From Glutinoglossum americanum (lineage: Eukaryota; Ascomycota; Geoglossomycetes; Geoglossales; Geoglossaceae), in contig JAGHQL010000108.1 in the NCBI GenBank assembly GCA_020080175.1, positions 27,296 to 91,295 of the forward strand: a stretch of 64,000 bases of DNA. The letters are read 5' to 3'. This document shows positions 7,723 through 27,473 of the stretch, piece after piece. The notes below the pieces were generated by a model that was given only the letters and a program-made list of their open reading frames with translations, did not search any database and was not told the DNA's origin. The position numbers and the translations under genes are program-made. Position 1 is the stretch's first letter, and each line of letters opens with the position of its first letter.

Positions 7723-10700
7723 TCAAGCCATCACCACCCCCAACCTCGGGGCCTCCAAGTAAAAATCATCAAACCCCTCCATCAACCCCCCAGGACACCC
7801 CGCCTCCAGCCTCTCTCCCTCCCCAAGATCCCACCCAGCCCCCCACGTCTTCTGCCACAAATCCACCGCCTTCTGCGCGACACCCGCCCCCATCAGCGGA
7901 TTCTGCCACCTCTCGACGACTTCCTCGAACCTATTCCCCTCGTTACCCATAATAGGCGCCCAAGCCGGATCGCTCGCTTTCGGGACGGTGGTGGGGAAGG
8001 GAGGAGCCGGGGAGAGCGCGTCGGCGGCCATGGCGGCGCGGACGTTGAAGGATTCGATGAGATCTGGGGATTCGAGGGGTACCGGGGAGTAGATCGTTAG
8101 GCCCATCATCAGGTTTGTGGTGTTGTCGGAGGTGCCGTTTAGGGCGGAGGAGTTTTTGTTGGCGGAAGGGGAGAGGGTGGGGTCTTCGGATGGTTTGTCT
8201 GCGCGGGTCGGGTGTTAGTACGTGTCTTATACCCTGGGAAAGGGGGGTGGTGCTTACAAAGCCCCCAAAGCGCGTTTGGCACAGCCTTTATAATTGACTC
8301 CGCCTGGTTCCAAACCGGCACGTTAGGTTTCTCCTCGATCTCCACCCCATTCAACATCAACTTCTTCGGCTCTGGCGGCAAATCCTGCGTGATCGTCACC
8401 GTCACCGCCGACGTCAGTGGTGTCGTTAGCCGCATCGGCTTCGCGTAGATCGAGCCGCCCGTGCCGGGGACCACCGTCGGCGGTGGCGGATCATCTCCAT
8501 GCACACCCGTCACCAATGTTGCCTGGTTGATCGCGAACTTGGTGGCTAGCGAGAACGAAAATACCGCGCCGCGCACGTTCCATGGCTGCCCGCTAGGCGT
8601 GGACTCCTGTTTTCCATTGGGTATAAGCCCGCTCTGCACCGTAAACACATGTGGCGACGTGGTCGCGGGTTCCCCCTCCGTCGTCGCCTCCTCACTACCC
8701 GACGCCAACAACAACGCTAGCTTCCCTGGCTTGTCCGAATCCTGCATAACCATCTTGAAGAAATCCCCCAGCGACACCGCGGCTATCGGCCCCGCGGAAG
8801 CGCCGAAGTTGATGTCGAACCCGAACACCCAGAAATCGACGTGCACCGTCCCGCCGAAAGGCGGGCCCTGGATGTACAGCGTCGCGCCAATTTCGACGCT
8901 AATGCGGATGGTCACAATCCAGAGGTCAAGCGTGAAGGCCACACCTACGGACAGCCCTCCCTCCGCCTGGAAGAAGAATGGCTTGTAGTTGATCAAAAAG
9001 TCCGCATAGGCGTTGAACCACGCGCTCAGCGGACCTAACGCTAGCGAGACATCGAGCCTGCCACCGCCCATACACATCTTCGGCGTGATGGCAAAGTACG
9101 CCTGTCCCGTGATGCTGATATTCCCGTTGAAGTTCCAGCTGATGGCTAGTCTCGGCGGGTTCGGGTACTGTGGCGGCGGCCTAAACGCCGAATGGTAGCC
9201 CCCGATCGTGAAGACCCACTGCCCCTGCAACTCCGGGTCCCGGCTGCCGAACCAGGAGTACAGAGCGAACCCACCCGTGAGATGGCAGTTCCGATCTATA
9301 ATGTACGACGCGGGGGTCAGCTGCCCTTCGATCTTCATGATGCCCGCCGCGAAGTCCACCGTCGCCACGACGCCGAGCTGCACATGCGCGAACTTAGGGA
9401 CGCCCTTGCCTGGAGGGATGTCCGCCGTTGCGACGCCAAAGAGGCCGAGTTTGACCTTGGGGTCCCACTCGATGACTACGACAGCCTGCACGGTGAGGAT
9501 CTCCATCGCGTCGACTGTCAGCCCCGCGGCGAGCCAAAAAGAGCCGTTCTTGGGCGCGAACCAACCCCCGCGCAGGAGGTTCGCCAGAGTGTCCTTGGCC
9601 GTCGCGCCATCGGGCCCCGGGGTGGATCCGCCCATCGGGATGAGGAACGGGAATTTAAGCACGTTCTCCACAGTCGGGAACGCCAAGCTCGTATTATACC
9701 CAAACCCGCCCGTGATCCCTGAGATCTGCGCAAACTCCAGAGTGATCAGCGGGCCATTCAGTCGCGCGAACGCGAAGAAGCTCTTGAACGCCTCCTGGTC
9801 CGGCGGGGTCGTCTCTCCATAATACCCCGCTGCCTGGAACAGCCACGGCATGTAGCTCACGATCAACGCGCCTTGGTAATACTCGGTATCCTTTGAGAAG
9901 CCGTGCTCGAAGAGGCCGGCAAGAAGGATTGGGGGCCTGTCAAAGGCGGCGCTCATGCCTGAGAGGGCGAATTTAGGCTCAGGTAAGTTCTGGAGCGAGT
10001 TCTTGGAGGTGAACGGGAGGGTGATAGAGAAGCCGAGGAGGGAGAAGGTGATCGGGCCGAGGGTTATGGAAGCGTCGAGGAGAATGCCGATGGAGGACTC
10101 GTCGCCATTGGTACTGAACTTGAGGCCCATATTTTGGATGGAGAGCGGGCCGATGGTCTTGGAGTAGCTGCCCATGGCAGAGCCCGAGTCTGTGGTGTCA
10201 TCGTCTGTGCGAATATCGATAACGTCGCTATCTTCCACGACTTCCGTAACAGCTGTCCTCGCGGCGATTGCCTTGGGCGGTTTCGTCTTCTTCTTAGACG
10301 CAAATTGATAATCCAGCGCTACCTTCGCCACTCCCTTTGCATCATTTAGCACAAGCATGAAATGGCTCCCAGCCTGCACTAGCACATCCCCGTCGCCCTG
10401 CTTGTCTTTCGCCTTCGTGAACTTGAATGGTAGAGGCTTTTGTTCCAGGTCTTCCAGCTTCGCATTGATGTATTTTAGGTCCGCGTAAGTTAGCCCCAAT
10501 ACTGGGGGATCATCGGTATTGCTCTTGCCGTCACTACCTTTCTGTTTAGGCGCCGGCTGCACCCACATGTAGAGCATCTCGTCGAACGGTTGCGTAACAT
10601 CTCCTACGAGCGGAATTACTACGCTTGGTAGCTGGTGTATGCTTGCCACGAAAACCCTTCTCACGGGGCCAAGCGTAGGCTTGTCCCCAATGTTAATCCG

Positions 10701-13700
10701 ACTTTGAATAAACTGGAACTTGAAACCCTCGATGTCAACATATGCTGTGAAGAACGTGTTCCGCTGCTTCTGACCTTCCTCCAGCGAGTCCGCAACGATC
10801 TCCAGGCCGATATCGTTCTTCGCTTTGGGCGGCTTGACGCTGATATTGGCTACGAAAGGCGGAAGTGGTGTATCTAGCTCCCCAAGAATACTCTCGACGA
10901 TCTTGCCGACAGTCGTAGAGGGGATATCCGGAATGTCTGGAATAGCCTTTGCATTGAAGGTCCAACCCTTGTCTTTATACTTGAACGTCAGATCTAGCTC
11001 ATGTGTGCCCAGCATAAGGATACCATTGAAAGTGAAGCCTGGTGAGCCGCCCTTGCTGGCATAAGTATACTCGATATCCAATTTCTTGATAAACAGACTT
11101 TCAATGACGCTCAGCACGCCGTCTCGAGATGAGGCCCCAAAATAATCAATAATCGTCGACCCAAACAAGTTCTCAACCCCTGCCTTGAGCACCCAGCCAT
11201 CTTTGTCCTTGACTATAGAACCGGACACCTCGATCGGGGACCCGTACTTGGAGTTCGCGGGCGGCATGAATATCGCTGTCATCGCCAAGGACACTTCGAA
11301 CTTCGTCTCAGCTCCCCAGGCGTACGACGCCGCCAATTCGATCTTGCCCAGCGGGATCTCGGGAGCTTTGTCATCGGTTTTCTCTGGCTCCTTGCAGAGC
11401 ATATTGCCCGAGAAGGAGATCCCATCAGACCCGATCTTGATGCCCGCCTGCGCGATCTGGGTGGGGATCTGCTCGGGGAGACCTTCCCAGCCGGCGAGGG
11501 CGGTGAGGTCAAGGGTCGGACCTAGATCGCTGGGAAGGATCGTGACGGGGCTGAGCTCCATGTAACTTTCGTACCCGGGGAGCAGGGGCATAATGGTGGT
11601 CTTGGCGTCTCCAATGGGCGGTGCTGTTGGGGTCGCGTTAATACAGATTAAGGCTTTGGAAAGGGGGAAAGAAGTATAAGGAATGAAGGAACTCACCTGT
11701 CCAAAGATCGGCACTCAAGGCACCCCCAGTTCCCCCAGCCCAATTGAACGACACCAAAAATAGTGCCGTCTTCGTGCCCCCAAAATTTAATTTAACTTCC
11801 ATTTCTACACCAAACTCCTCCAGCGTTCCGTTCGCTTTATTACCTGGCGCATCCTCTAGGCCAAACACCATCACTACCCTCCTCAGACACACCTGTGCGA
11901 AATTCACCTTACCCGCAGCCTTCTTCAACCAGCCCTGGAAATCAAACTGGCCCGCGAGTCCGACCTTACTGGCGAGCCACTCAAGGATGGTCTCGAGCGC
12001 GCCGCTGATGTCGGATTTGAGGGTGAGCTGGAGCCTTATGGCGGAGGGGAGCGGCTCGATTATGGCTTCAAAAGGGATTTTGGAGAGAACCGTCATCTCG
12101 AGGCCGAAGGCTATGGAGCCATCTTGCACGACCGCGACGGATTTGGCAGAGGTACTCCACATCGCCGTCCGGCGTCCGATCACGAAGCCCTTGTCCAGCT
12201 TGATATCAGCGCCGATCTGCGAGAGTAAACCCGAAGTGATGAAAAGCGTCGTGTTGTCGATGTCGTACTGCAACCTCAGCGTCGTCTTGTACCCATTAGA
12301 CGGCTCAAACCACACCGCATTGCGGTTCCCCTTCACCGCCGCCGGGCCACTGAGTTTGAGCTTCAGATCACCGAGCGCCGCCATGGTGAGTGAGCCCACT
12401 TGCTCTTGTAGGCCGAGGTAGTCTACTAGGTCCGAGAGCACAATGTCAGGTGGTGGGGGGGGTCTGGTGTCAAGGCCAAAGACGATGGTGTCGCTATCTT
12501 CAAGGTAGCCCATGTCCGGCACGTCCACGGTGAATGCATCCGAGGCGGCAGCGGTGGAGAAGATGAGGACTTGCCCCTCGCTGCCCTCCTTGATCTCCAC
12601 ACCAAACTCGAACCCGCTAACCGCCCCCGCACCGGAATTCGTGACAGCAACGTCCCTAGCGCCGATCGCGTCCATCAGCCAAGCACCCATCTCATCGCTC
12701 TCAAGGAGCAGGGTGGTGGCCGGATCGGTGCCGGAAGGGGGAGCCGCAGCCAGGCAGACGACGCCATAGTGCAGGGCGCCAACGAAGCCATCGAGCGGAG
12801 TCCCTTCTTTAACCTTAACATAGGAGTCGGTTCCAACCCCGATCTTTTTCGTGGGAATCCGATTGGAGTACAGAAAGAACCCCTTCTCAGGAACTGGGGC
12901 TTTTCTCGGGGATAACGTTGGTGGAGCTAGGGCTGGGGGCATGGTAACAGCACGGGCTCTCGATTTTCCCCCTTTCCCCAAATTGTCCCTTTCATTTGGG
13001 TCTGTGCCGGGGGGCGAAGAAAAAGAAGAATTGACAATCACCCCAGACGTCCTCCTTCCCAACCCCACCTTCGCACGAGGACCTTTCCCTCCAACAAGTG
13101 CCAATTTGTCATCAGGTTTTTTGGGTTTGCCGCCCAGGGGCGGGCCGGTCAAGGGGAAGCCACCGGCCGCGGAGTGAGCCACCGTGGGGTTTTCTACGCA
13201 CTTGGTCGAATTTTCAGCGACCTTGGCGCCAGGGCGTGCAAAGCGGTGGAGGGTGCTGAGACCCAGGTGTTTGTAGGCAACACCGCCATCTGTAGCATCA
13301 TCGTCCCTGCTTTCGATCAGAAGGCAGTCGACTGCGTTGTTGGCATCGACCTGGGCTTGGCTAGGCATGACGTGACCAGCGCCGGTGGAGGGGTGGGCTT
13401 CCTCTCCAGGGAAACCTAAGCATTTCTGTGTATCTATTAGCAAGCCCAGTAGAACAACCATAATAGCGAAGAGATTGCGCTGTGGATTCTGCGTACCCAG
13501 CGAGCATCGACCTGATCTAGAAGCCATTCGGTCTTATCTTGATTTTTTAGTTCGGTATATGCCGTATACTCCGTGATTAGTTTCTGGGAGGGGTCTCGGA
13601 TTTTGTTTATCTTCGCGTAGAAGTCGTCCATGGCCTTGCGGAAGGGCTTGTCTGCCTCGGGATCGTCGAAGCTGCTCGTGTCGATCTCCCCACTGAATGT

Positions 13701-14946
13701 GTAGCCACCCTCCTTGCTAAGGGCCAGGTACCACGGGAACTTCAATGCGAAGATCCGGGTTTTGTAGTCGTTGGAGATGGCCCAGCCATGGAGGCAGAGC
13801 ATGATTTCCCAGGCTAGGGAAATTTGAATTGCCTCACGTTAGCTTGTGTATCCGCGTGTTGGACGTTCGTATTCTCTTGCTATAACTCAAGCTGGCGGTG
13901 CCATGGAAGACAGGTCGAAACTTACAAGGATGCACATAGCTCCCATCTGGGTTCGAGATAAACACATTCAATGGCCTAAACGCATCCAACATACTCGGCT
14001 CCAGCGGCGTCGAGTTCTTCGACCCATGGTGGCTCAGCTTCATGCTTGTCACCTTTCCATCCCCGGGTTTCTTGCTTAGCCACCCCACTACAAGTTGCTC
14101 TGTGGCCTGATCTGCGTCCCCCCCAAAGTAATGGGATATTCGCCCACTCTCCCATTGTATGATCGCCACGATAGAGTACTGGGACGTCTTCGCTACGGAC
14201 TCACTCGCGGTTTTCGCCGGCTTACCCATAATTTCTCCCATGCAGGCTATGCAAGACATAGTTGGAAGGTCGCTGTTGGAGTTGCTAGCACGAAGCTCAG
14301 CGGGGGAGCCCGAAAGGTGGGCTGTAGTGGGTTTGGTGGCTGGCTCGAAGAAGTTGGCACCGAGGACGTCTGAGAGTTTCCCACCAATATTCTCGTCGGC
14401 AGTTTTGAGGAGACCAAAGGCAATCCAGTCTTTATCGTCTTTAGGAGCTGTCGACTCTGCACTAGACCACAGGCGATTGATGAACGCCTTTCCCGCATCC
14501 TGTTTCAGTAAATTCGTAGGTGCGCCATCTAAAACCCATTTATTCTCCTCCTTCTTCCCGTCCCAATTCGGGCAGAACATCACCGTCTCTGGGTCTCCTC
14601 CGCTGCTGTACTTCAACCACGGGACCTCCTTCCTATCCTTCGCATATTTAAGAATTGCGTCGAACACACCGCCATAGTGATCTTTGTTCCAGTGCGTGAT
14701 GACGATGGTATCGAACTGGATCAGCTTATTCTGCGTCTTTATCTCGTATCGTTTCGAGAGCCATTCCACCAAGCGAATGATGGGGTTCTCGTCGCTTGAT
14801 CCGCGCGGGGAGGGCCCGCCATCAACTAGGACGGCGCGGAGAACCTCACTCTTCTTGTTGGGATTTAGCTGGACGAGGAGGTGAATGGCACAGTCGCCGA
14901 CTTTGACGTTGACGTGGTAGGAATCGACGCCAGTGTTGTTGGGCAT
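7723..14946 (-). CDS. Giant metallo-beta-lactamase-fold / DUF6603 protein
   Basis: My preferred model has five exons: 14946-13926, 13813-13497, 13425-11697, 11623-8258 and 8198-7723. All introns are short (60-112 nt), GT-AG and phase-consistent, giving 2,302 aa. Residues 1-446 form a ComEC-like metallo-beta-lactamase module. The metal motif is H85-W-N87-K-D89-H90, so the second His of HxHxDH is Asn. Downstream are FGGDAD near 270 and LSHHGSKN at 304-311. Residues 450-1000 are a low-complexity linker followed by beta-rich sequence. Residues about 1480-1960 carry a DUF6603-like region, with FFAFARLNG near 1637 and GGFGYNTS near 1661. No signal peptide is visible on the fused form. An alternative is two genes: an MBL protein ending at 13437 (465 aa) and a DUF6603 protein starting at 13527 (1,890 aa). 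DUF6603 has no known function; the MBL half may hydrolyse a phosphoester or nucleotide, which is inference. Confidence 0.75.
13437..14946 (-). other. MBL module; alternative separate gene model
   Basis: If the third intron of the fused model (13496-13426) is not removed, this frame runs to a stop at 13437 and gives a free-standing 465-aa MBL protein. The last 20 or so codons would then be the intron sequence. That stretch starts GTACGC, contains TTGCTAATAG and ends ATACACAG. It has all the features of a fungal intron, and the separate DUF6603 start at 13527 would lie inside the MBL reading region. I therefore favour fusion. Confidence 0.45.
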
Positions 14947-17166
14947 TGTGAGGGTATTTGGAGGGACGAGATGCACAGAGGTTGATGCTAGCTAGCTTCA
15001 AGAACGCAAGTGCCTAGAGATTAAAACTCTCTTGGGATCTCATCCTCCTTAGGGTATCCGCCTTGAAGTCAATAGTTTCACCAAGGCAATAGCAAGAGCC
15101 AAGAGTCCTCCTCCACGATGGGGGTTGGGCTTGTTCAACCGAAGCAATGCAGAAAACAACCAGAGTACACAAAAGCCCTTACCCGATCTTCGACTCTGGT
15201 AGAGAAGAGTTGTCCTCCAAAGCTGGTAATGCTTTCTTCGTCACCCGCAAGCAAACAAGGTAGCAGTTGGAGGATCGAGGGGACGGGCTTATCCCCCTCA
15301 CCGACAGCCATGAATTTCCGCCAGAGCCCCCCCGCGGCGGCCGGAAGACTCAAATGCATGCAGTCGATGTTCTTGATCTAGGCCCGAGTGGAAGCCCATC
15401 TCCTTCTTCCGCAGGACACTATAGACGCAGTGCTTCACCACGAATGGCATTGAGTACGCATAGGCCATGCAGGCCGTGCAAGTTGGCATCTTCTTCGCAG
15501 AAACTCCATCCCAGTAGCGACATCGGAGCCCCACATGGATCGACGAGGCGTGCGTGTTTCGCTGGCCTTCGCGTGCAGTTGCCAGAATGTGAAGTGGGGA
15601 TTCCGGTGCGTGAGATGCAGTTCGAGAGTCACCTTTCACAGCTCGCCGTAGTGTTTCGGCGAGCAGATGTGAGTTCCAAGAATGTACGTGCGATGTGCGA
15701 TGTGCGATGTGCGATGTGCGATGTGTGATGGTGATGGTGGTGGTGATGGTATGTGGTGGATGTGGTGGGTTCGGGCCAAAAGTCAGCGAAGTGGATAAGC
15801 GAATTCCCCGTGAGGCTTCTGAACGGATCTGTTTTACTATTTGAAAAGACCAATGAATGTGTCTGTAATGTGTCACGCCGGCCTTGGTAATCCTCCGGCC
15901 CGGCCCGACCCTTTCTTCAGCCAGCCGCAGCGCCCAGGACGGGAAGCAGGCACTGCTCCCCGACTTTGACAGGACGTGATGCACAGCCCAACTAGTGATG
16001 TGTGATGTGGCGTTGTGCGTTGCATCTGAAACTGATCCCGACCCTGAATCGCCGCTGGTCAGTCTACGCGCGTAGTGTTTAAAGTTTGTTTCCTGCGGGT
16101 GACTTGACGTGCAGTTAAGCCGCAGTTAAATAAGTATCCTGATAGGGATATGCCCCGCTTTTGGTACGAATACGGAACGGGTGCTCCTCATAACTATAGT
16201 TAGTCGCTGTTACCTAGTGTCGTGTGCACCACAAAGATTTTTCAAACCATTCGTAATTGAGATTTTCGTGCGTGAATCTTTGGAATTCGGTACAAGTGCC
16301 CAGGCACTGACAACACCAAGGGCCTAGTACTGTACGGAGGATCGCGCCACGGTCGTCTCTCCCAGCTGAAATGCAGTGAACACGGCTTTGGCCGTGTGTC
16401 ACACGTCCATGTAGAGTACAGCACTGGGTCAAAAGTGTTAGAGCACTTTACGCATTGGCTCGGCGCTGCCAGATCCACCACTAGAATGGTGATCGAAGGT
16501 CCCACCGTGTGGGCATAGCCGAATCTATTGGGCTTTGAGTACATTTCTGTTTGTGCGGAAAATTGAGTTTGTATGCTAGTGCGAAGCAGTTGTGAGGCTA
16601 TCGTTGCGTTTTCGCTACGCATTCTAGTTGTCTGTTGTGCTTGGCTGCGGGTCTCATTGCCTCATTGTGCGTGGAGACTTAGCTGCTACCATGGGTCATG
16701 CTGACCCCGCCAGATCTTGCGAGCGCGCACGCCAGAGATACGGTAGAGGTGGGCATGGCCCGGCAAGAGGTTGATGCTAGGCGGCCTTAGGTTGTGTTAG
16801 GCTGGGCGTTACTTCTGCTCGCGAACCTCTGGGTCCCCGGCAAGTCCCTTGAGGCCGGGGCAGTCGCTAACTAGTCCCTAGTTAAACATCCTGTCAACTT
16901 AGGGCCCCGCTTTAACTAGAATCTAGTTGACTATCATGAAGCTATAGTTAGGTGACTAATGTGTCCTGATGTCTATGTCCTAGCGCTGTAGAACAGCTAA
17001 TGGTGGATATCCGCATGCTCCACGCCTCACTCGTGCGTAAATCGCAATTCTATGGGCAGCTTGAGCAGGAAATTTGACATTGGACTTGCATTCACGATAC
17101 GGAAATCATCGAATAGGCATAACTAGGCTGGCCAACTTCAGGGAACCTAGCACCCCTTTCCCCATC
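14947..17166. other. Intergenic region with a short tandem repeat
   Basis: About 2.2 kb between two minus-strand genes. The part next to 14946 is the presumed promoter of the MBL/DUF6603 gene. Long open stretches near 15298-15984 on the minus strand come partly from a tandem repeat and show no motif. No RNA gene was recognised. Confidence 0.45.
15688..15728. repeat. 7-bp tandem repeat (GATGTGC)n
   Basis: About five direct copies of a 7-bp unit, followed by imperfect GATGGTG copies up to about 15765. It is a simple minisatellite in non-coding DNA. Confidence 0.85.
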
Positions 17167-20100
17167 TCAAGACTTTGGTCCATCCCCAGTGATCGCAGTC
17201 TTCATCTGTAAATACCCCTCTAGAGCTGTGTACGGCCCCTTCTCAAACTTCGGCCTATTATCCACCTTCCCCAGCCCCAGCGCCATAAACGCCGATCCCC
17301 CTTTCCCACCTTCCTCCTCCGCTCCCCTATTATCGCCCTCCTTCTCACCCTCCCCGCCCACCCAGTAGGGCTGCAGCCAGCACCAGTCCGCCACCGGCAA
17401 CGCCGGCATCCCGACCTCTGATCCCTCGACCGTTTGATCCTTTGCTGGCGGTACGAATCCGTAGTTTGATTTTAGCCTATTCTTCTCCTCGAACCTGGGA
17501 ACGTCGGTGGGTACGATGAGTGGGCCCATGTGGAAAAAGGCTGTCATTCGGTTGAGCGCGCTCTCCCAGGTCCAGCTGGGTAAAGAGAGGGACTTAATCG
17601 GCAGGATACCTGAGTAGGCGCTCAGCGGCAGGAAGGGGTCCATGATCGTACCAAAAACTGACCACTGAGAGTTGCGGATTAGGGCGTAGTTGGCCGGATC
17701 TTTGTCATCGGGGGGGGTGTAGAAGGGCCAGAGGATGGGATAAGGGGGCTTATCGATGAGGTGAATGGGGTTTTTGGGGCCAGGCGGGGGGCCGCTGGGC
17801 GTATGGAAATAAGTGTAGAGGGTATCGAGGTTAAGTTCGTTCCCCGGAGCCGGACTGGGGAGCGCGTCGAAGTAGCCAACGAGCCCGTCACTAGTGCGCT
17901 GTTCGTCGCCCAGCTTGACGGAGAAGAAGTACTGCTTGTCCCTATCCTTCGGGTTGGTCGGTTCGGGGCCATTGTAGAGAATGCTCCGATCGGGATCCCT
18001 GCCCTTCTGGCCCTCTTGGGATGATTGGTTGACCTTGGCGTCCGCCGCCAACTCTAACGAGAATCCTGCGTTAACTAGTGCCAGCGGCTTCCCGACAAGT
18101 GAACTGACGAACTTCGAGTATGCGCTGGGCGCAGATGGCGCGCGATCCAGAGCGTTGATGATCATATCAAGGAAAGCTAGGAGGTATGTCTCATCCTCCT
18201 TGTTCGTCAACTTTTCGAGCAGGCGATCCAGTTGGCCCGTATTGGTCGGACCCTTAGGCGGACCAAACGGTAACCAATTCGGCGAAGCAGCCACATGAGC
18301 TGAAGAGTTCGGTGCGGCGAGACGGACCTCACGGTAGAACGTCCCATCGGGCAGGAAGATCTGGATACCATAATCCACGTAATTGACCACAAGCCAACCC
18401 CAGATTGGGTTCTCCCATTCCGTCGCAGGCCTCCAGTAGACAGCGCTAGTAGACTCCTCATTGCGTACCACGAATGCCGAGTTCAAGCGTGTGGGCTGGT
18501 TAATCTGTGGTGGCACCTGCATGAACTCACAGAATCCATCAGCTTCTCGAGGGCCCACAATTTTCGGCTGACCAGCATCACGATGGCCAGGTGGGTACAC
18601 CTGGGGCTCGTAGTATTCGCTGATGCATGGGTAGACTGCCTGGGGGCCTGTGGGATGGTATGATGGATCAATAGCATGAACGGCTTGACCGAATTTGTCG
18701 ATGATGTTGAGCTTTGTGAATCGAAATTGACCGTGCGTTACGGGTTTAAAAGCAGAGTAATCCTCGCCGAGGAAGCTAACCATGAACCCGTAGGGGGTTA
18801 GATCAGATTCTTTATCAATCCACTGTAGCTGATCTTCTTTCATCCCACCTTCGCTTGAGGCCTTAACTGCGTCGGGTATGGGTTGCAGAGCCTGCTTGCG
18901 CATTCTCGCATTTGGCTTGATGTGGCTGCCATGAGAGACCGTCAAAAGGTGGTCTGTAAATCCATCAAGGGGAGATGAGAGGAAGTGGAGCGTATGGAGA
19001 TCAGCTAACAGCTCCTTCTGCTTTTCAGGCGGAAGAGCGCTATTAAGGAGGTCCTCTGGAGTGGTGCTAAATAGTCTTGTGATCTGCGCCTGCAAATCGA
19101 AGATGGGCTGAGGAAGGATGAGAATCCTCCCTGAGGCGATACGAATATCTTTAATGGTCACTGGAGGGGGACCTGGATCGTAGATGGTTTTATCTTCGAG
19201 TATCCCATATCTGTACTTGGGGTGTTCAAATAGACGAGCTGTGTGCTGATTAACATCCCAATAATCGAAAGGAATATGGGTATATTCGGCTTCCCACTCC
19301 AAAAACAGCGGGAACCAGGGTTGTGTACTCTCCCACCGGTCTCTCCAGGGGTCCTCAGGCTTCGGGTTATTGGCTGGATCTCCTTGGTCGTGGTACAATG
19401 GATAAAATTGCGTCGGCTGAATTTCCAGAGACGTTCCCGGCCTGAGAGCCATAAACTCCCCCACGAGCGAGGCGCCAGCATCTCGCAACGCTGCAGGAAG
19501 GCAGCCGACACCAAATAACGGGTCGGTGCTAGTAGTCTTAGAGATGATCTGCGAGTCCAGTCGGACCTTGAGTAGCTCCAAGAAGTCCCAGGGCCATCCG
19601 GCATTAACCCCTGCAACAAGCAAGGTGGGATCTCGTTGCTGGAAGAACTCCGGCCGGACGGCCTGAGTGGGGGTTCTCCTGAAGCTTCCACCCTCTTTGA
19701 GGGCCTTGATTTTGTCCCATTGATTAGTAGCTAAACTATTTAGCTTCTGTAGGCGGGTTGTTAGAGCGCTCGAGTCAATGTTGGAGATTGCATTTGAGTG
19801 GTTCACGTCACTGACATACTTCCACCACAATGAGAACATATTCCACCGAAGCTGTTGTAGCATGCGCATTGTGCCATCCAGAAGATCCTGAGCCTGATTA
19901 AGATTCTTTAGAGCCAGAGCTTCAGCTTCTGAAGGAGGCACTATATTCTTATCACCTGGATCGGCCGGGATATGCCAGTAAGTACCACCGCTAGCTCTAG
20001 AGAAATTCCAATTTTGCACCTCATCGGCGGCGGCCCGTTGTGCTTCAACGCCATCATCTTGGGCGCGTAAGAGTACACGGAGTTTGTATAAGTCTTCCTC

Positions 20101-21303
20101 AAGTTCACTGCCGCCCTGACGGTGAGCTTCGATATATGCTAATAGAGAGTCCATTGATGTTGTACCGACTGCGACTGGCATCCCCTTGTTCAACATGTGC
20201 GAGCATTCGTCGGCCGGCATCTTCTTCGGTTTTTGTTCGGCGTTCCACTCGACGTTATACATTGCTCCGTGACAAAGGGCCTGCGTAGATTCGGATGCGT
20301 TGAGCCAGGCAGTGACATCAGGAGGCGGCTCCTTCTGAGCGTTCAATGTCATATTTAGATCTTTGAGCCGTTGTTCATGTGTCGTGCCGTCCCCGGTGAA
20401 AAACGGGTCGTCATTAGCATCCGAGTGCCATCCAATTACATAATAGCTTGCGACAGCAGCTGTCAGATGGTTTTCTTCGTTTAGGCCATAGCCGAACGTA
20501 TCAAGGGTAGAAAAGACATTGCCGCAATGGGGTTGGAAGTCGGCAAACAGCTGATTAGAACTGTTCAAGAGACTGAGATCCGCTCTTTTAGCTCCAGGGA
20601 TTTCGTCCCCGACTTTGCCCTCCTTCCATGTCCTCGCATCTTCTCTATACCCAATGAAGATCTCTGCTTGCTGTTCGATACTAATACCATCACTGCCAGT
20701 GACACCCTGAGAGGTGAGGAACGGCGATACGTCCACCTGAAGATCAACGGAGACATCAAGGTCATCAATACTGCGCATTAAATCACTTTCAATAACCCAA
20801 GCTTTAATACTTTCGATCCCAGATTGGGCAGGTTTAGTGGTAGGCGCATTGGGGTCGAGAATCCGGATTACCAACCACCTATTGGGAACCCTTCTGAATC
20901 GAGGTGCCGTAAGGTCTTCTTTCCCGGGATCCAGATTCTTGCCGGGGGGCTGCGTTGCCGAAGGACTATCGGCCACTCCGCTTCTATAAAATCGAGGAAT
21001 CATCCAGTGGAGATAGACTCCCAGGCGGTTGATTCGGGTGGTTGCCTTTCCAAGGTCTCTAAGACGTGGGTTGTTCTCCGCCGGTGCAGCATTATGGAGA
21101 TCAATGTGTTCCTGAATATCGTTCTGCACGAGGAAGTCTTTAAGCCGGAGGAAGGTGTAGTTCGGTTGAGTTATGGGAGCGATTTTGGCGTCTGGTAGGA
21201 CGGTTTCCAAGGTTTGAGCATCGGGGGTTTCGCCGCATACCGCCGGGTTGAAAACGAAGGCGTCTAGCTTGAGCGGAACTGAGACTTTGCTTGATGTCGG
21301 CAT
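17167..21303 (-). CDS. Giant uncharacterised protein (1,378 aa), island partner
   Basis: A single uninterrupted exon of 4.1 kb. I chose the ATG at 21303 (MPTSSKVSVPLKLDAFVF) because the open frame upstream has no ATG and differs in composition. No enzyme motif, signal peptide or membrane helix is evident. Distinct phrases are YLHWMIP at 97-103, PNRWLVIR at 140-147, AWVIESD at 168-174 and SYYVIGWHSD at 286-295. A helical, possibly coiled segment (LKNLNQAQDLLDGTMRML) lies around residue 460. The second half is mixed with many Pro and Trp. From memory, the HLHW, PNRWLVxR and AWVxESD pattern resembles large bacterial proteins of unknown function; I cannot verify that here. It is co-oriented with the MBL/DUF6603 gene and shares with it large size and few introns. 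Function unknown. Confidence 0.85.
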   Translation of the reverse strand: MPTSSKVSVPLKLDAFVFNPAVCGETPDAQTLETVLPDAKIAPITQPNYTFLRLKDFLVQNDIQEHIDLHNAAPAENNPRLRDLGKATTRINRLGVYLHWMIPRFYRSGVADSPSATQPPGKNLDPGKEDLTAPRFRRVPNRWLVIRILDPNAPTTKPAQSGIESIKAWVIESDLMRSIDDLDVSVDLQVDVSPFLTSQGVTGSDGISIEQQAEIFIGYREDARTWKEGKVGDEIPGAKRADLSLLNSSNQLFADFQPHCGNVFSTLDTFGYGLNEENHLTAAVASYYVIGWHSDANDDPFFTGDGTTHEQRLKDLNMTLNAQKEPPPDVTAWLNASESTQALCHGAMYNVEWNAEQKPKKMPADECSHMLNKGMPVAVGTTSMDSLLAYIEAHRQGGSELEEDLYKLRVLLRAQDDGVEAQRAAADEVQNWNFSRASGGTYWHIPADPGDKNIVPPSEAEALALKNLNQAQDLLDGTMRMLQQLRWNMFSLWWKYVSDVNHSNAISNIDSSALTTRLQKLNSLATNQWDKIKALKEGGSFRRTPTQAVRPEFFQQRDPTLLVAGVNAGWPWDFLELLKVRLDSQIISKTTSTDPLFGVGCLPAALRDAGASLVGEFMALRPGTSLEIQPTQFYPLYHDQGDPANNPKPEDPWRDRWESTQPWFPLFLEWEAEYTHIPFDYWDVNQHTARLFEHPKYRYGILEDKTIYDPGPPPVTIKDIRIASGRILILPQPIFDLQAQITRLFSTTPEDLLNSALPPEKQKELLADLHTLHFLSSPLDGFTDHLLTVSHGSHIKPNARMRKQALQPIPDAVKASSEGGMKEDQLQWIDKESDLTPYGFMVSFLGEDYSAFKPVTHGQFRFTKLNIIDKFGQAVHAIDPSYHPTGPQAVYPCISEYYEPQVYPPGHRDAGQPKIVGPREADGFCEFMQVPPQINQPTRLNSAFVVRNEESTSAVYWRPATEWENPIWGWLVVNYVDYGIQIFLPDGTFYREVRLAAPNSSAHVAASPNWLPFGPPKGPTNTGQLDRLLEKLTNKEDETYLLAFLDMIINALDRAPSAPSAYSKFVSSLVGKPLALVNAGFSLELAADAKVNQSSQEGQKGRDPDRSILYNGPEPTNPKDRDKQYFFSVKLGDEQRTSDGLVGYFDALPSPAPGNELNLDTLYTYFHTPSGPPPGPKNPIHLIDKPPYPILWPFYTPPDDKDPANYALIRNSQWSVFGTIMDPFLPLSAYSGILPIKSLSLPSWTWESALNRMTAFFHMGPLIVPTDVPRFEEKNRLKSNYGFVPPAKDQTVEGSEVGMPALPVADWCWLQPYWVGGEGEKEGDNRGAEEEGGKGGSAFMALGLGKVDNRPKFEKGPYTALEGYLQMKTAITGDGPKS

Positions 21304-22404
21304 TTCTATTGTCTGTGCCTGTAGAGTCTTCAGATGCTGGAAAAATGGCAAAGGATGTAAGCTTACTGATGGAAGTCGGAGTAGAGATTTTCCTACGGAG
21401 ATTTGGCGAGAGGGCACCCTCAGTCTCAGTGAAAAACCAGTCAGTCGCAGTTAGTAAGGCTACGCCATCGTGCAAGATAGAAGATTATGGGAGATCCTCC
21501 GGTCCAAGCATCAAGGCGAACAGGTGCAACCTGAGCCCCGAACCTCACACCAGAGGGCAGCTATGCTCTGTCTACAAACAGCAAGTCTGCGGGTGAACAT
21601 CCCGTCGATCGCTCTAGACGTCGCTCTGGACGTCGTTCTGGGCGTCCTTGCAGCTGCTGAAGCTGCAAAGCATAGGATGCAGTCGGTCAGTCCGCATGAA
21701 GATTTGACTACCCGCATTACAGCGTGGAGGATCTTACAGCGCTGGATGCGGCATTCCAAGTCGCATTGATGCGGAGGGTCACGTCGTGAGATGGTGATAG
21801 CTCTGAGTCAAGATGATGTCGTGGTCAACTTAAAGCTGCACCGGCTCGGCAACTTTTACCGAAGCCAACCCTAAAATGGCCCCGACGCACCCAATAAAGC
21901 GATGCGCTATACGACACTGCACATGTATTATAAGTGATTCCAAAAGTGACCATGCAAGAACGAGCGGGGCGCTCGAGGAGCTGCAATGGTCATAGCGCCG
22001 GAGCTGAAAATCTCAGTGACCCGCACAACATGCAGTAGGGCCCTGAAAAGCACAATAATTAATTAGGCCTAGCTTAGTGGTTGCGTCTATGTCTCTGCAG
22101 CGCGCGAAGTGTGCAGGAACCGTAGCAAGGCTCGATACTGCCTCGCGTCCTGCCTTCCCCGAACCATTTTGGGGTGCCAGCATGTTTGCGTAACATACTG
22201 AGACGCTAGCTTCTATGCTTTTGGTTCTTGTTTTGGTTTACAACATAATCACAGCCACGGGCGGGACAAAATAATCCGCAATTAATTGCCCAAAATAATT
22301 GACCAAGTTACATCATCAGATTCTCAATTTGGTAGTGCTTGTTTACTAACTACTTCCCGACCCTAGCTACATGTCAGAACATAGGTGGGTCACTATTTCG
22401 CCTC
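21304..22404. other. Intergenic region upstream of the 1,378-aa gene
   Basis: The presumed promoter of the minus-strand giant gene occupies the part next to 21303. The rest is AT-richer and non-coding, with no RNA gene or mobile element recognised. A short direct repeat of GACGTCG-like units occurs near 21617-21645. Confidence 0.4.
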
Positions 22405-23439
22405 TTACGGCTCTCTCGTGTCGAGGGTATCCTCGACTATGTTGAACCCATCGCCACCATCTTGCTGGTAGACCACGTAGTTTATGGTCCCAGAGTTCGT
22501 AACTGAGAGACATGTACCCTGCGCAAGGTGGATTGAGCCTGGAACCTGGAACGGTTTTTGCCACCCATCCTTCGTCAATGCTACCTTTGTGAGATAGCGA
22601 CCGGAGGATCCGTAGTAGAGGTAAATGTTCTCCAGTACAGCCACCATGGCAAGTGGTGTTCCAGGGGGAAGACCATCAGTATTTTGGATCCTCGTTGCTG
22701 GACGAATTAGTCAAAGCCCTCAGCTAAACTGCATCTCTGGGTCTTACAAGCTTCTTGGTCTGTGTCGTATGAGAAAAGGGAATTGTTGGATTCCAATGCT
22801 TGATAGGCGATGAGCCGAGATTGGGCCCTGTTACAAGCTGCAATGCTAGTGTTGGGATGCGGAAAGGTCTGCGGGAGTACAGAGAGGTTGCCGGCGTCAT
22901 TGTTGGTCAACGAATATTCAACTATCTTCGGTGCTGCGAGGTCGCCCCTAGACGCAGTTATTGAATGTTTCCATCCGAGTTTGGAGTAATCAGGCCAGCA
23001 TACTGCAGATAGTAGACGCGAGACCTGTTTGCCTGCTCGTTTGTGGTAGCGAGGCCAGGGAACATTGTAAAGCTGGGTTTGCCGATGGCAATAGGGTTGT
23101 AAATAGGGCTCAGTTGGGAGATCACGTTAGGACTGCCCGCAGGTGCGCCCTTCTGTGCAGTAATGCCATATACGGTGACCTAGCAAACCCCATGAGCGAA
23201 GCCGTACAACCTACGGGTTAAGCAGTTGTCGGCAACATTACCATGTTGGCACGAAGACAGACTGCCATGGACCCAGGGTTCTTGATGACACCCTGCACAG
23301 TGCCTTTGTCAACATAGGCAGGCCCGGAGCCGCTCAGAAGCTTGCGCTCGAGGCCGAGCTGGGCCGATTGCGTCAAGAAAAATATCAAGATCTGATCCGC
23401 CTTGAGGGGATTCAATAGAGTAGCGACGGGGCTGGCCAT
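22405..23439 (-). pseudogene. Beta-propeller / fungal-lectin-like protein with one internal frameshift
   Basis: Exons read 23439-23242, 23179-22748 and 22697-22405, with good GT-AG introns (GTAATG...GCTAG and GTAAGA...GTCCAG, the latter with a GACTAAT branch). The product would be about 306 aa: MASPVATLLNPLK..., then VTVYGITAQKG..., then TRIQNTDGLPPG... ending NIVEDTLDTREP. Within exon 2, near 22955-22965, the frame shifts by one base: SDGNI is followed by SITASRGDLAAPKIVEYSL in another frame. Exon 2 is 432 nt where 433 would fit both junction phases, so one base appears to be missing. The repeated pattern of short strands (IYLYYGSSGRYLTKVAL, GWQKPFQVPGS, INYVVYQQ) suggests a six-bladed beta-propeller like fungal fucose-binding lectins. 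That assignment is tentative. It could be a recent pseudogene or a sequencing error. Confidence 0.6.
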
Positions 23440-24104
23440 AGTTACTAAGTCTTAGGATCTGCTGTTTGCAAGTTTATGCTCGAGGTAGGGAATATTTTGT
23501 GATGTCTAGGATTTCTGGGATGGGCGGGGCAATATATCTCCCACCCAGGTCGGAGAAAACCGACCCGGGTCCCAAAAAGAGGCAAGAGAGTGCGTGGCTC
23601 GCACCACCAAGGTAAGCAAGCTAAGACTCGTCGTCAGCCAGCCACGTACATAAGAGACATGTCGTAGTTAGACACAAAGAGAGTATCGGCGTGGGGCCTT
23701 GATTACACGTCGACTAGGTGACAGTCGGCAGGGCGGAGGAGAGTTAGCGGCATGGGGTCGACGTCCGAGTTCGCAGCTGTTACCCTGTCGGCTGTGTGCT
23801 CTCGGTAAAAAGACGTGCAGCCAGCCACCAAGGTGACGGCCGAGTACATGATACATTAACTTCCGATCAGTCACCCTCACCTGTAATATCTGTTCTACAC
23901 TAGAGTCGAGACCATCCACGAGCGGGGTCAACCAACAAAAGCAATATAGGCAGGATGACCTGGATGCGCTCGGGGTGCGCTCGCCGCAACCCACGTAAGG
24001 AATTCGCCCATTTCACTAGCCCCCCTCTCGAAAATTGTTGCTGTTAAAGTGCATCCTCCATTTCCCTCGAAAGACCAAGTCAGTACTCTGCACTGATAGT
24101 CGTC
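23440..24104. promoter_or_regulatory. Shared divergent promoter region
   Basis: About 665 bp separate the start of the minus-strand propeller gene (23439) from the start of the plus-strand 1,122-aa gene (24105). The head-to-head arrangement implies a common upstream region. No specific operator was identified. Confidence 0.4.
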
Positions 24105-27100
24105 ATGCCCTCGCACCGCAATCGTCCTTCCAAGTTCATCGACTCGCCGCGTCATCTTGTTCTCCGCCATGGCCACCGTCTGATACAGCGCATAAACAAA
24201 TTGGACGAAGGTGGCCCCACACTGCCTCCGGGGTACGAAAAGTTACACTCGTTCTTTGTACCTGGTCTGGAGGCCGGATTACATACAATCGGCGTTGAGC
24301 AAGTGATCACTGTCCCTGGCGACCCTTCGTCCCCCTTGAAGAAACAGAATTTCCAGAAATTCAACGTTGTTGCACCCCGTTTCACCCTGCCAGACAATAC
24401 AGTCTACTCTGTCTATCCACCTCAAGGACATGCAGATAGAGCAGAAGTACTGCCGCACGTCGTCTTAACTGACCCAACTTTGCCTTGGGAAAGAATCGGG
24501 AGCTGGGAGGCAGAGAGAAAAAAGCATCCTCCCGAGGATATAGATTATAGAAAGAATCGTGTGCCATGGCTTGCGGTCTTATCATTCACCGAGGAAGAGC
24601 TTCGACTTGCTCCCTCAGATCTTGCTGGAGATACAAGCCTCTTCAAGGGGACGGTCAATTTCAAGGATAAAGCTCAACAGAGCACGACATTGTCCATCAA
24701 CATGCCGGTGACAGATCTGCGCCTGGTCGACACCAGTAGGGTAGCCACGCCCGTAACCTATGACCCGAATGTGGACGCAAATCCGGACGGGTCGACTCCT
24801 TCAACTGACGCGATATTCGTGCCAACCAAGCTATTCAGGAGCTTCTTCGCCTCCCACAATGCAAACGGGGTACCCGAGCCAGCATCTCTAGACGTTTCCC
24901 GCTACAGATTTCTTGCACACCTCCGTAACCTCAATCCGACAGGAATGGCGGAGGCGGATACGACAGATGGTGACCGCGCTTTCTCAATCGTGGTCGGACA
25001 TCGGGCAGGACCACTTGATATCACGAAGCCGACGACCGTTGTTGTCCACCTCGTCTCAATTGAGGGCGTGGAACGAATGGATCCCAATGCCGTGCCACAG
25101 TTTGTTTCTCTATCCTCTCTATATAGCTGGACTTATTCTTGTCTTCCGCCAAACTCGCTCAACGTCAGCGATGCATTCGCTGGGCTGGGAAAGACCCTCA
25201 AGATGCTTAGACCTAGCCTCACCGACAAACAAATTGCGAGTATTGAGGCTGAGGAGCCAGCGGGTGGCCGAGTCGCCCGAAGGATGCTAGATGGCTACTC
25301 GATAACTCGATACCGCGCGCAGACTGGCGAACCTACCGCTGCTTTCATCAGAGGCCCATTCACGCCTACAGAAGTTCCATCTCCTCTTACCGAGACTTGG
25401 ACAGCCCTCTCGACTTCTGGCGCCGACCTACAAATCTTAGACCAGGAGCTCGGTATCATGGACCTAACGTATTCCGCCGCCTGGCAATTGGGAAAGACGC
25501 TCGCCTTAGCCGACCCCGCGTTTACAACCGCTCTCACGAGTGTCCGAAAGCAGATCTTTGACCTTGCAACAAGCGAGGCGCAGGCAGAGGCTCTACGGAA
25601 GAATGGGGCCCACAAGTCCCGCGTGGAGATCCTCAAGTCAATTGGCCAATCAGTAAAGCAACTTCGAGATCTCCCAACGAGTCCGCAATCGCAAGGGGTG
25701 GGAATCATGTCGCATCGCTGGCGACGAATGGCAGTTCTCCCTCTCGATTTATCTTACCATAGTGATTCGGTCGACCCCGATATTGAAAAGCATCTAAACG
25801 AAGCGGCGATGATCATCTCCAGTAGTGTGGACGACGATGGTAAACCGACCGAACACCCGTACGACGAACACAATACCCCATATTCGACTGACTGGATGGT
25901 TGTTCTGCGTTGGATCCTAGACAGGGCCTTTCTCGTCAATGTACCCGCACATTACTTCATCACTGACCCAATACATCTCCCCATGGAAAGTCTCCGGTTC
26001 TTCCACATTGATGCCAATTGGACCGAGGCGTTCATCGACGGTGGTCTCAGTCTCGCCAATCATCTCGATCGTGAAGACGACAAGATTCGTTTAGCAATCA
26101 AGAATGCCTACAACCGCTACATTCACACTCCCAACTCCCAGCTCGGTTATGCTCCCCCTATCCCTCGTTATGGGTTCCTTCTTCGCTCGGTGCTTGTTAC
26201 CCAGTTCCCCGATCTAGTGGTGAAGACCTTCCCGGAATTGAATTCGACGAGCCCTCCAGTTATCTTGCGCCACGAGAACATCGACAAAGGTGTCATGCTC
26301 TGTTTGTTCGCCGAGGCTCCTTCCGCGAATACCTTCGAGTCCCTCACCCTCGCACAGCCGCCCCACCAGCAGTTTTTTACTATTGCTGACGAGTTAACCG
26401 TAAAATATATTGAAATGACTTACAAGAAAATATATACCGTCAAAGAACCCAACGACCCAAAGCGAAGAGAGGGACTAGAACGGCCTAAATGGAAAAGGGG
26501 TGAAGTGACGCCTCGTAAACCAGTGTTCCTCTGGGGCGACAACGAGGATGCGCCGGAAATCCGAACATTGCTTTTCGACAACTTCGCGAACGACCTCTTC
26601 AACTCATTGGTGGATGGGATGAATACCAAAGAGCACTGGTTTGACGAGAAGTGCGCAACCGCAGCGATGGTTGGGATCCAGCTCAACGACCCCAATTGGC
26701 AGCTCACAATCGATCTCAAGGACCCCGCAGCAGTCGCAGATCTCTCCATACCAGCAACGGGACCAAAACCACGAGCGCTAACGATCAAAAAGCGGAAGGT
26801 GCGCCCAAAAATGCCTATTAAGACACTTCAGCAAGTCGAAACCCGGAGCGCACCTCATCCCACCTTCCAAGAACGGACCCGCGTCCACCCCCTCATTCTC
26901 GCCCACCCGCCACCACACTTCCGCATCCCCGCATCACGCTCCGTCGTCGAAATCCAACGCGGCAGCGACGACCCAGCCGGCGCCCCCAAATACATCTATT
27001 CCGCCTACCCGTCCGACCAGCTCCAATCCCCCACAATCCCCATGGCCAAGATCCAAGACCTCGTCTTCTCCATCGTTTACAAGGAAGGCGCGCAGGACTT

Positions 27101-27473
27101 CAAGATCGTGAAGGTTACGCTGGCGATCAGGCTAGGCAATCCGGCGGGGCCGGGCGACGTTAGAGGGCCCATGATGTCTACCTATGCGGGGTCGGGCGCG
27201 ACGATGCTGTCGAATCTCAGGCTGAACGTGATACCATTGTTCGAGACGAGGAGTGATAGGAGCAACTGGCTGGTGCTGACGCTGATGCCGAGGAGTACGA
27301 GGGGGTGGATCGAGGCGGAGCTGGTGAAGGAGATGAGTTTTCTGTTGAGCGGGGTCAGCGTGAACGTCTCGCCGGACGCTGTGAAGTCCACGGTGATCAT
27401 CAGGGAGTATTACCAATTCGGTCAAGTTTTTGAATATTCGTTCGAGGTTAATCTCGCACCGTTGCCGTCATGA
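24105..27473 (+). CDS. Giant uncharacterised protein (1,122 aa), island partner
   Basis: A single exon from ATG at 24105 to TGA at 27473. No signal peptide, membrane helix or recognised catalytic motif is visible. Distinct phrases are FNVVAPRFTLP at 86-96, VYSVYPP at 100-106, LPHVVLTDPTLPWER at 116-130 and PWLAVLSF at 154-161. Further on, around residues 614-650, are PAHYFITDP, LPMESLRFFHID and a WTEAFIDGGLSLANHLDR segment. The C-terminal part has a basic linker near 890-920, then beta-rich sequence. From memory, this order (RFxLP, SVxPP, LPHVVLxxxTLPWER, PWLALLxF) resembles large bacterial proteins of unknown role. That is recollection, not a search result. It is transcribed away from the other three island genes. 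Confidence 0.85.
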   Translation: MPSHRNRPSKFIDSPRHLVLRHGHRLIQRINKLDEGGPTLPPGYEKLHSFFVPGLEAGLHTIGVEQVITVPGDPSSPLKKQNFQKFNVVAPRFTLPDNTVYSVYPPQGHADRAEVLPHVVLTDPTLPWERIGSWEAERKKHPPEDIDYRKNRVPWLAVLSFTEEELRLAPSDLAGDTSLFKGTVNFKDKAQQSTTLSINMPVTDLRLVDTSRVATPVTYDPNVDANPDGSTPSTDAIFVPTKLFRSFFASHNANGVPEPASLDVSRYRFLAHLRNLNPTGMAEADTTDGDRAFSIVVGHRAGPLDITKPTTVVVHLVSIEGVERMDPNAVPQFVSLSSLYSWTYSCLPPNSLNVSDAFAGLGKTLKMLRPSLTDKQIASIEAEEPAGGRVARRMLDGYSITRYRAQTGEPTAAFIRGPFTPTEVPSPLTETWTALSTSGADLQILDQELGIMDLTYSAAWQLGKTLALADPAFTTALTSVRKQIFDLATSEAQAEALRKNGAHKSRVEILKSIGQSVKQLRDLPTSPQSQGVGIMSHRWRRMAVLPLDLSYHSDSVDPDIEKHLNEAAMIISSSVDDDGKPTEHPYDEHNTPYSTDWMVVLRWILDRAFLVNVPAHYFITDPIHLPMESLRFFHIDANWTEAFIDGGLSLANHLDREDDKIRLAIKNAYNRYIHTPNSQLGYAPPIPRYGFLLRSVLVTQFPDLVVKTFPELNSTSPPVILRHENIDKGVMLCLFAEAPSANTFESLTLAQPPHQQFFTIADELTVKYIEMTYKKIYTVKEPNDPKRREGLERPKWKRGEVTPRKPVFLWGDNEDAPEIRTLLFDNFANDLFNSLVDGMNTKEHWFDEKCATAAMVGIQLNDPNWQLTIDLKDPAAVADLSIPATGPKPRALTIKKRKVRPKMPIKTLQQVETRSAPHPTFQERTRVHPLILAHPPPHFRIPASRSVVEIQRGSDDPAGAPKYIYSAYPSDQLQSPTIPMAKIQDLVFSIVYKEGAQDFKIVKVTLAIRLGNPAGPGDVRGPMMSTYAGSGATMLSNLRLNVIPLFETRSDRSNWLVLTLMPRSTRGWIEAELVKEMSFLLSGVSVNVSPDAVKSTVIIREYYQFGQVFEYSFEVNLAPLPS

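What the first reader, a model, noticed from the sequence alone, without database searches (positions are those of the whole stretch)
7723..27473. Island of giant, intron-poor proteins (MBL-DUF6603, 1,378 aa, 1,122 aa, propeller): candidate inter-kingdom system
Four consecutive genes over 20 kb encode very large proteins without standard fungal domains. Both the 1,378-aa and 1,122-aa genes are single exons. Their phrases (YLHWMIP with PNRWLVIR and AWVIESD; VYSVYPP with LPHVVLTDPTLPWER and PWLAVLSF) resemble, from memory, large bacterial proteins of unknown function, and DUF6603 is known in bacteria and fungi. Seen: sizes, order, motifs. Inferred: that they form one functional module, possibly acquired from bacteria, perhaps building a large extracellular or particle-like assembly with a lectin-like partner.
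Basis: partly seen in the sequence, partly recalled or inferred. Interest (0 to 1): 0.9.

Follow-up and report, generated by a model that had tools for sequence, protein, structure and literature searches.

The report
Giant-protein module of bacteria and fungi
A fungus carries a cluster of giant proteins of unknown function whose relatives also sit side by side in scattered bacteria, near exchangeable binding and enzyme genes, which points to an undescribed molecular machine shared by bacteria and fungi.

Summary
The island encodes an MBL-fold exon leading into a DUF6603 protein, a single-exon 1,378-aa protein, a 288-aa four-exon gene (weakly like a fucose-lectin propeller) and a single-exon 1,122-aa protein. 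In fungi the 1,378 and 1,122 genes stay linked: of 16 same-contig pairs with one tag series, 13 are one or two tags apart. In prokaryotes DUF6603, the 1,122 family and the 1,378 family are contiguous, same order and strand, in 15 of 18 loci examined. In 398 Pseudomonadota genomes each family matches 9, the same 9. An MBL gene is upstream in at least 5 of the 15. Downstream proteins in two actinobacterial loci end in binding domains (F5/8C, PLAT). The fungal 1,378 proteins form one group, split from bacteria by a long branch; transfer from bacteria is likely, the root is not fixed. Best guess: a soluble body-tip-hydrolase assembly used against other cells. The inter-kingdom module is well supported; its mechanism is inferred.

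The parts
13926..14946 (-). MBL-fold exon (THWNKDH, HHGS), probable 5' exon of an MBL-DUF6603 gene
7726..13813 (-). remaining exons of the DUF6603 gene (13813-13497, 13425-11697, 11623-8258, 8198-7726 in the model); splice sites inferred, no RNA evidence
8550..10163 (-). DUF6603 domain (PF20248)
17167..21303 (-). 1,378-aa protein, single exon, body family with bacterial relatives
22405..23439 (-). 288-aa four-exon gene, weakly like a fucose-lectin propeller
24105..27473 (+). 1,122-aa protein, single exon, body family with bacterial relatives

Best explanation
It is a conserved multi-gene module found in prokaryotes and in ascomycete fungi: three large body proteins (DUF6603, the 1,122 family, the 1,378 family), a varying target-binding protein and a varying hydrolase. 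Most likely mechanism: the body proteins assemble into a soluble complex; the binding protein fixes it to glycans or lipids of another cell (in some actinobacteria a fibre-like protein ending in F5/8C or PLAT, in the window a possible fucose-lectin propeller); DUF6603, whose sequence is amphipathic in beta periodicity and rich in aromatics, contacts or enters the membrane; and the hydrolase (MBL here; elsewhere perhaps the PLD-like or DUF6765 and Hint-like neighbours) does the damage. In the fungus the proteins tested show no clear signal peptide, so the complex would wait in the cytoplasm and act when hyphae are broken or eaten. Shown: gene content, linkage, joint presence, co-variation, binding domains in some loci. 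Inferred: assembly, target, membrane action and antagonistic role.
For: Same order and strand in 15 of 18 prokaryote loci; identical set of 9 of 398 genomes for the three families, G001 being ascertained; distances of the three families correlate (Spearman 0.67-0.69 over 10 non-redundant loci, p 0.0015-0.0065); fungal linkage with mostly one gene between. MBL upstream in L002, L023, L024, L025, L049. Binding ends F5/8C 9.8e-13 and PLAT 8.6e-16 on downstream proteins with related N-parts; RicinB, TIG, FG-GAP over cut-off on distant relatives of the 1,378 protein. Beta-type hydrophobic moment of DUF6603, z 2.7-5.4 in the four domain-bearing sequences tested; no such signal in the 1,378, 1,122 or MBL proteins. 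Hydropathy of N-termini. Fungal cytoplasmic defence lectins without signal sequence as precedent (PMC6272156, passages).
Against: No structure. No assembly, toxicity or release has been shown. No lysis or secretion gene was identified. The MBL is absent or unseen in most loci, and MBL and PLD proteins resemble intracellular defence enzymes LmuA and DrmC. PHROGs finds no tail-fibre family for nine downstream proteins (one virion-protein match, 2.4e-4). The fibre look is by eye. The propeller match is under the cut-off. Co-variation and linkage do not by themselves show joint function.
Confidence: 0.38

Rival explanations
1. Intracellular immune or conflict device: the body proteins are a sensor or scaffold, and the MBL or PLD enzyme is a nuclease-type effector switched on inside the cell.
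For: The MBL proteins match LmuA (2.8e-10 window, 1.2e-11 S. clavuligerus) and the P. polymyxa PLD protein matches DrmC (4.4e-5). No clear signal peptides. Rare and patchy (9 of 398 Pseudomonadota; 1 of 299 Bacillota, the centre itself) and on plasmids. HET and NLR-like genes lie 9-23 kb away in the window.
Against: Binding domains F5/8C, PLAT, RicinB suit work outside the cell. No defence model matches the three body proteins. No NTPase or sensor domain was found in them.
Confidence: 0.22
2. Surface, spore-coat or lipid-handling complex: DUF6603 forms a hydrophobic beta groove or sheet and the other proteins build an adhesive or lipid-carrying structure.
For: Amphipathic beta signal and length up to about 3,500 aa of DUF6603 proteins; PLAT domain; W, P, G and R dominate the columns shared by fungi and bacteria.
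Against: Linked hydrolases; variety of binding ends; no signal peptide or membrane helix to bring it to the surface; rarity in Pseudomonadota.
Confidence: 0.2
3. Bacterial-origin block kept for metabolic or housekeeping reasons: the hydrolase acts on a small molecule and the giants only organise it.
For: MBL enzymes have many substrates (general knowledge); the giants have no recognisable catalytic domain.
Against: The hydrolase gene is the part that varies while the giants are constant.
Confidence: 0.08
4. Chance neighbourhood of unrelated large genes.
For: In the fungus order and strand differ from bacteria, and the 1,122 gene is on the other strand.
Against: All the linkage evidence.
Confidence: 0.01

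Closest known systems
Pfam PF20248 DUF6603 (family of unknown function)
   Same: The window protein and its bacterial counterparts score far over the cut-off.
   Different: The family has no function; the module around it is not described in any paper that or 99 could find.
Phage-tail-like injection systems and tail fibres (general knowledge)
   Same: Downstream proteins look like fibres with exchangeable tips, by eye; one virion-protein match (2.4e-4).
   Different: No sheath, tube or baseplate family among the 15 ORFs of L002 and L003 that were scanned; P. polymyxa has baseplate-V-like genes about 9 kb upstream, with other genes between.
Large bacterial toxin complexes and polymorphic toxins (general knowledge)
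   Same: Constant body with varied enzymes and binding ends; a Hint-like gene in Desulfosporosinus, slightly under its cut-off.
   Different: No Pfam domain in the 1,378 and 1,122 proteins at E 0.1; no relation to any such complex was tested by structure.
Lamassu LmuA and AVAST Avs1a MBL enzymes
   Same: MBL exon matches LmuA 2.8e-10 and Avs1a 0.0022.
   Different: The body proteins match no defence model.
Fungal fucose lectins (PF07938, Aleuria type)
   Same: The 288-aa gene aligns over residues 130-273 to profile 124-274 of 299.
   Different: E 0.093, under the cut-off; no PDB lectin match; sits between two giant genes.

Membership tests
DUF6603 (PF20248) | score over the curated cut-off along the domain | tested here: met
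   523.9 bits, cut-off 27, profile 2-499 of 502
Metallo-beta-lactamase superfamily | score over the Lactamase_B cut-off | tested here: not met
   16 bits against 22.7 for the first exon
Metallo-beta-lactamase superfamily | metal-binding motif and downstream HHGS of the ComEC-like branch | tested here: met
   THWNKDH and HHGS; ComEC/Rec2 model 3.1e-7, under its cut-off; LmuA model 2.8e-10
Fungal fucose-specific lectin (PF07938) | score over the curated cut-off | tested here: not met
   12.6 bits against 25.3
Fungal fucose-specific lectin (PF07938) | six-bladed propeller and fucose binding | not testable with these tools
   structure prediction off
Contractile injection system or phage tail | sheath, tube and baseplate genes in the same cluster | tested here: not met
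   none among 10 ORFs of L003 and 5 of L002 by Pfam; other loci only partly scanned
Toxin complex or polymorphic toxin | recognisable toxin-complex or repeat domains in the large proteins | tested here: not met
   no Pfam match at E 0.1 for the 1,378 and 1,122 proteins
Toxin complex or polymorphic toxin | fold and assembly of a translocating complex | not testable with these tools
Lamassu or AVAST defence system | MBL effector together with an SMC-like or STAND partner (general knowledge) | tested here: not met
   no defence model in the window 1,378, 1,122 and DUF6603 proteins; no such partner among the ORFs scanned in L002 and L003. An NLR-like gene lies about 20 kb away in the window

The most novel reading that the evidence does not exclude
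An undescribed class of cell-targeting nanomachine, neither phage-tail-like nor a known toxin complex, passed from bacteria into an ancestor of many ascomycete fungi and kept its three-protein body, while its binding tip was replaced by a fungal lectin and its hydrolase was fused to the DUF6603 body protein.
Probability: 0.25. Interest if true: 0.95.

Novelty: categorically new. Interest (0 to 1): 0.8.

Why it matters
Three large protein families without known function or solved relative are shown to belong together in bacteria and, for two of them widely and for the third in this window, in fungi. That turns several 'hypothetical' genes into one testable system. Multi-gene blocks that stay linked on both sides of a bacteria-fungus divide are rarely reported as far as I recall. 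If the assembly binds and harms other cells, it is a new type of weapon or defence with exchangeable tips in a large group of fungi. The label 'categorically new' rests on sequence: a fold comparison could still tie it to a known kind.

Tried and rejected
PDB sequence searches gave no convincing relative: profiles of both fungal families at E 1, none; mixed profiles and pieces at E 10, only coiled-coil proteins for the 1,378 family (best 0.034), thrombospondin 0.42, kinesin light chain 0.07 for a piece of the propeller-like protein and 0.55 for the whole, nucleophosmin 1.7 for DUF6603; the MBL exon, none at 0.01. All taken as chance or simple coiled coil. Viruses: the 1,378 profile found nothing in viral contigs (25 pattern matches, none confirmed), the P. 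polymyxa DUF6603 nothing in phages. Internal repeats in four DUF6603 proteins: one marginal hit. A frame break suspected in the propeller-like gene is a normal 56-nt intron. Papers: DUF6603 in 0, DUF6765 in 0; broader searches listed nothing on this module; only listings were seen, apart from passages of PMC6272156. No protein search was left for DUF6603, so its linkage in fungi rests on the window alone. I recounted the tag pairs (13 of 16, not all) and tested the propeller-like N-terminus.

Full report
OBSERVATION. The window lies in an assembly of 25.8 Mb in 317 contigs; its gene content and introns are fungal. Between 7.7 and 27.5 kb are an MBL exon and DUF6603 exons (minus strand), a 1,378-aa ORF (minus), a small spliced gene (minus) and a 1,122-aa ORF (plus). 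DUF6603 scores 523.9 bits; the two giants match nothing in Pfam or NCBIfam. Splice enumeration gives a five-exon MBL-DUF6603 gene; one intron has a weak donor and the last has two equally scored acceptors. The small gene has three GT-AG introns and 288 codons and a sub-threshold Fungal_lectin match, E 0.093. The own genome shows one match each for DUF6603, the 1,378 and the 1,122 protein.

FUNGAL LINKAGE. Searches gave 450 relatives of the 1,378 protein and 593 of the 1,122 protein; only the best 120 of each were listed. Hits that carry an organism name are Ascomycota by recalled taxonomy, apart from one labelled Carpinus fangiana, taken as contamination; many rows have no name. The two lists (119 rows each without the window) share 44 contig lengths; one, 5,482 bases, is too short for both genes, so at most 43 count. 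Counted by hand, 28 of the shared contigs carry the same organism name in both lists. Sixteen of the 28 have tags of one numbering: 9 differ by 2, 4 by 1, 2 by 9 and 1 by 30. The other 12 have numbers that do not seem to follow position. A step of 2 means one gene between, as in the window. Whether that gene is the propeller-like one was not tested.

BACTERIAL RELATIVES. A scan of prokaryote species genomes with the fungal 1,378 profile, which relies on two short peptide patterns, confirmed 2 of 31 pattern matches: a Rhodobacteraceae MAG (L002) and a Desulfosporosinus MAG (L003). Both genomes hold DUF6603 and the 1,122 family beside it. A search with the Desulfosporosinus protein found 50 proteins including itself; the named ones are from Desulfosporosinus, Dehalobacterium, a deltaproteobacterium, Nonomuraea, Nodularia, Neptunomonas, Chryseobacterium and Spirillospora. 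On plasmids DUF6603 hit 9 records and the 1,378 family 8; 7 have both, 10 have either. I fetched 8 of the 10; the two left out are further S. clavuligerus records.

CO-OCCURRENCE. In 398 Pseudomonadota genomes DUF6603, the 1,378 family and the 1,122 family each match 9, the same 9. G001 was found through the 1,378 family; the other eight were not. Several of the nine look closely related by protein length and score, so they are fewer than nine independent cases. In 299 Bacillota genomes DUF6603 matches only the centre genome. Of 18 prokaryote loci read with profiles, 15 have DUF6603, 1,122 and 1,378 in that order on one strand. The other three: P. sonchi has the two giants without DUF6603; the archaeon Halalkalicoccus has a weak DUF6603 only; S. 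europaeiscabiei has a weak DUF6603 and a marginal 1,122 match (E 0.0011). In 8 of the 15 the 1,122 family is two genes. Distances of the three families correlate over 15 loci (Spearman 0.68-0.74, 2,000 permutations) and over 10 after dropping five similar ones (0.67-0.69, p 0.0015-0.0065). This does not separate joint function from common descent of a linked block.

PARTNERS. An MBL gene is upstream of DUF6603 in L002, L023, L024 (in two frames), L025 and L049, 5 of 15; the motif scan did not cover L049 and L050, and not every upstream ORF was scanned with Pfam. The window MBL aligns with L024 and L025 (about 31% over 120 residues) and marginally with L002 (E 0.004). P. polymyxa has a PLD-like gene downstream (PF13091, 27.3 bits, cut-off 27). 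Desulfosporosinus has, between the 1,122 and 1,378 genes, a Hint-like gene (30.9 bits, cut-off 32.1) and a DUF6765 gene (78.5 bits). Downstream proteins in Streptomyces, S. clavuligerus and Embleya share an N-part and end differently: F5/8C in L049, PLAT in L023; the two of L021 show no domain over cut-off. Their middles look like a fibre shaft by eye only; PHROGs gives no tail-fibre family for nine downstream proteins, and one virion structural match of 2.4e-4 in L003. Distant relatives of the 1,378 protein carry RicinB_lectin_2, N_BRCA1_IG, TIG and FG-GAP_2 over cut-off and a LamG match just under it (5 scanned).

SEQUENCE CHARACTER. Sequences with the DUF6603 domain show a beta-type hydrophobic moment above shuffles (z 4.9 window domain, 5.4 L002, 4.6 L027, 2.7 L003); the 1,378, 1,122 and MBL proteins do not. 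By hydropathy no tested protein has a clear signal peptide or membrane helix, though DUF6603 stretches reach 1.8; the propeller-like N-terminus reaches 1.26. This is a crude measure. Columns shared by fungi and bacteria are mostly W, P, G, R and D. PADLOC finds LmuA-like and DrmC-like enzymes and nothing in the three window body proteins.

ORIGIN. In a 36-row tree of the 1,378 family, thinned from 65 rows, the 13 fungi are one side of a branch (SH-aLRT 100, stem 1.7), next to the Paenibacillus plasmid pair (88) under midpoint rooting. A FastTree of the 65 rows gives the same split. Diversity is deeper among bacteria and both giant fungal genes lack introns, so transfer from bacteria is the simpler reading. 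The long stem, the quick method, uneven composition and the missing outgroup leave direction and donor open.

INTERPRETATION. The module is real and inter-kingdom. A constant body with varied binding ends and varied hydrolases is what an antagonistic assembly would look like, but an intracellular defence role or a surface or lipid role remains possible. Cytoplasmic storage until the hypha is eaten is borrowed from fungal lectins (PMC6272156, passages read). No step of the mechanism has been shown by experiment here.

Noticed in passing
window 33244-50369: Kinase, ankyrin, HET-domain, PNP_UDP_1 and TPR-array (13 TPR_10 stretches, weak DUF7779) genes: a fungal incompatibility or NLR-like neighbourhood.
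   Followed up: no
L003:6153-9790: Hint-like and DUF6765 genes inside the Desulfosporosinus cluster, between the 1,122 and 1,378 families.
   Followed up: partly
L003, L024, L025, L027-L031: The 1,122 family is encoded by two genes, an N-part and a C-part, where others and fungi have one.
   Followed up: partly
L052:1-26353: On a Streptomyces europaeiscabiei plasmid a divergent DUF6603 gene with large unknown neighbours is flanked by several integrase genes.
   Followed up: no
L051:8491-18659: An archaeal (Halalkalicoccus) plasmid has a divergent DUF6603 gene between two large unknown genes.
   Followed up: partly
L027-L031: DUF6603 proteins of about 3,250-3,520 aa in five Pseudomonadota genomes.
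   Followed up: partly
P0036: A close relative of the fungal 1,378 protein is labelled Carpinus fangiana, a tree; probably fungal contamination of that assembly.
   Followed up: no
L020:1-3607: Baseplate-V-like and DUF4280 genes lie about 9 kb upstream of DUF6603 on the P. polymyxa plasmid.
   Followed up: no
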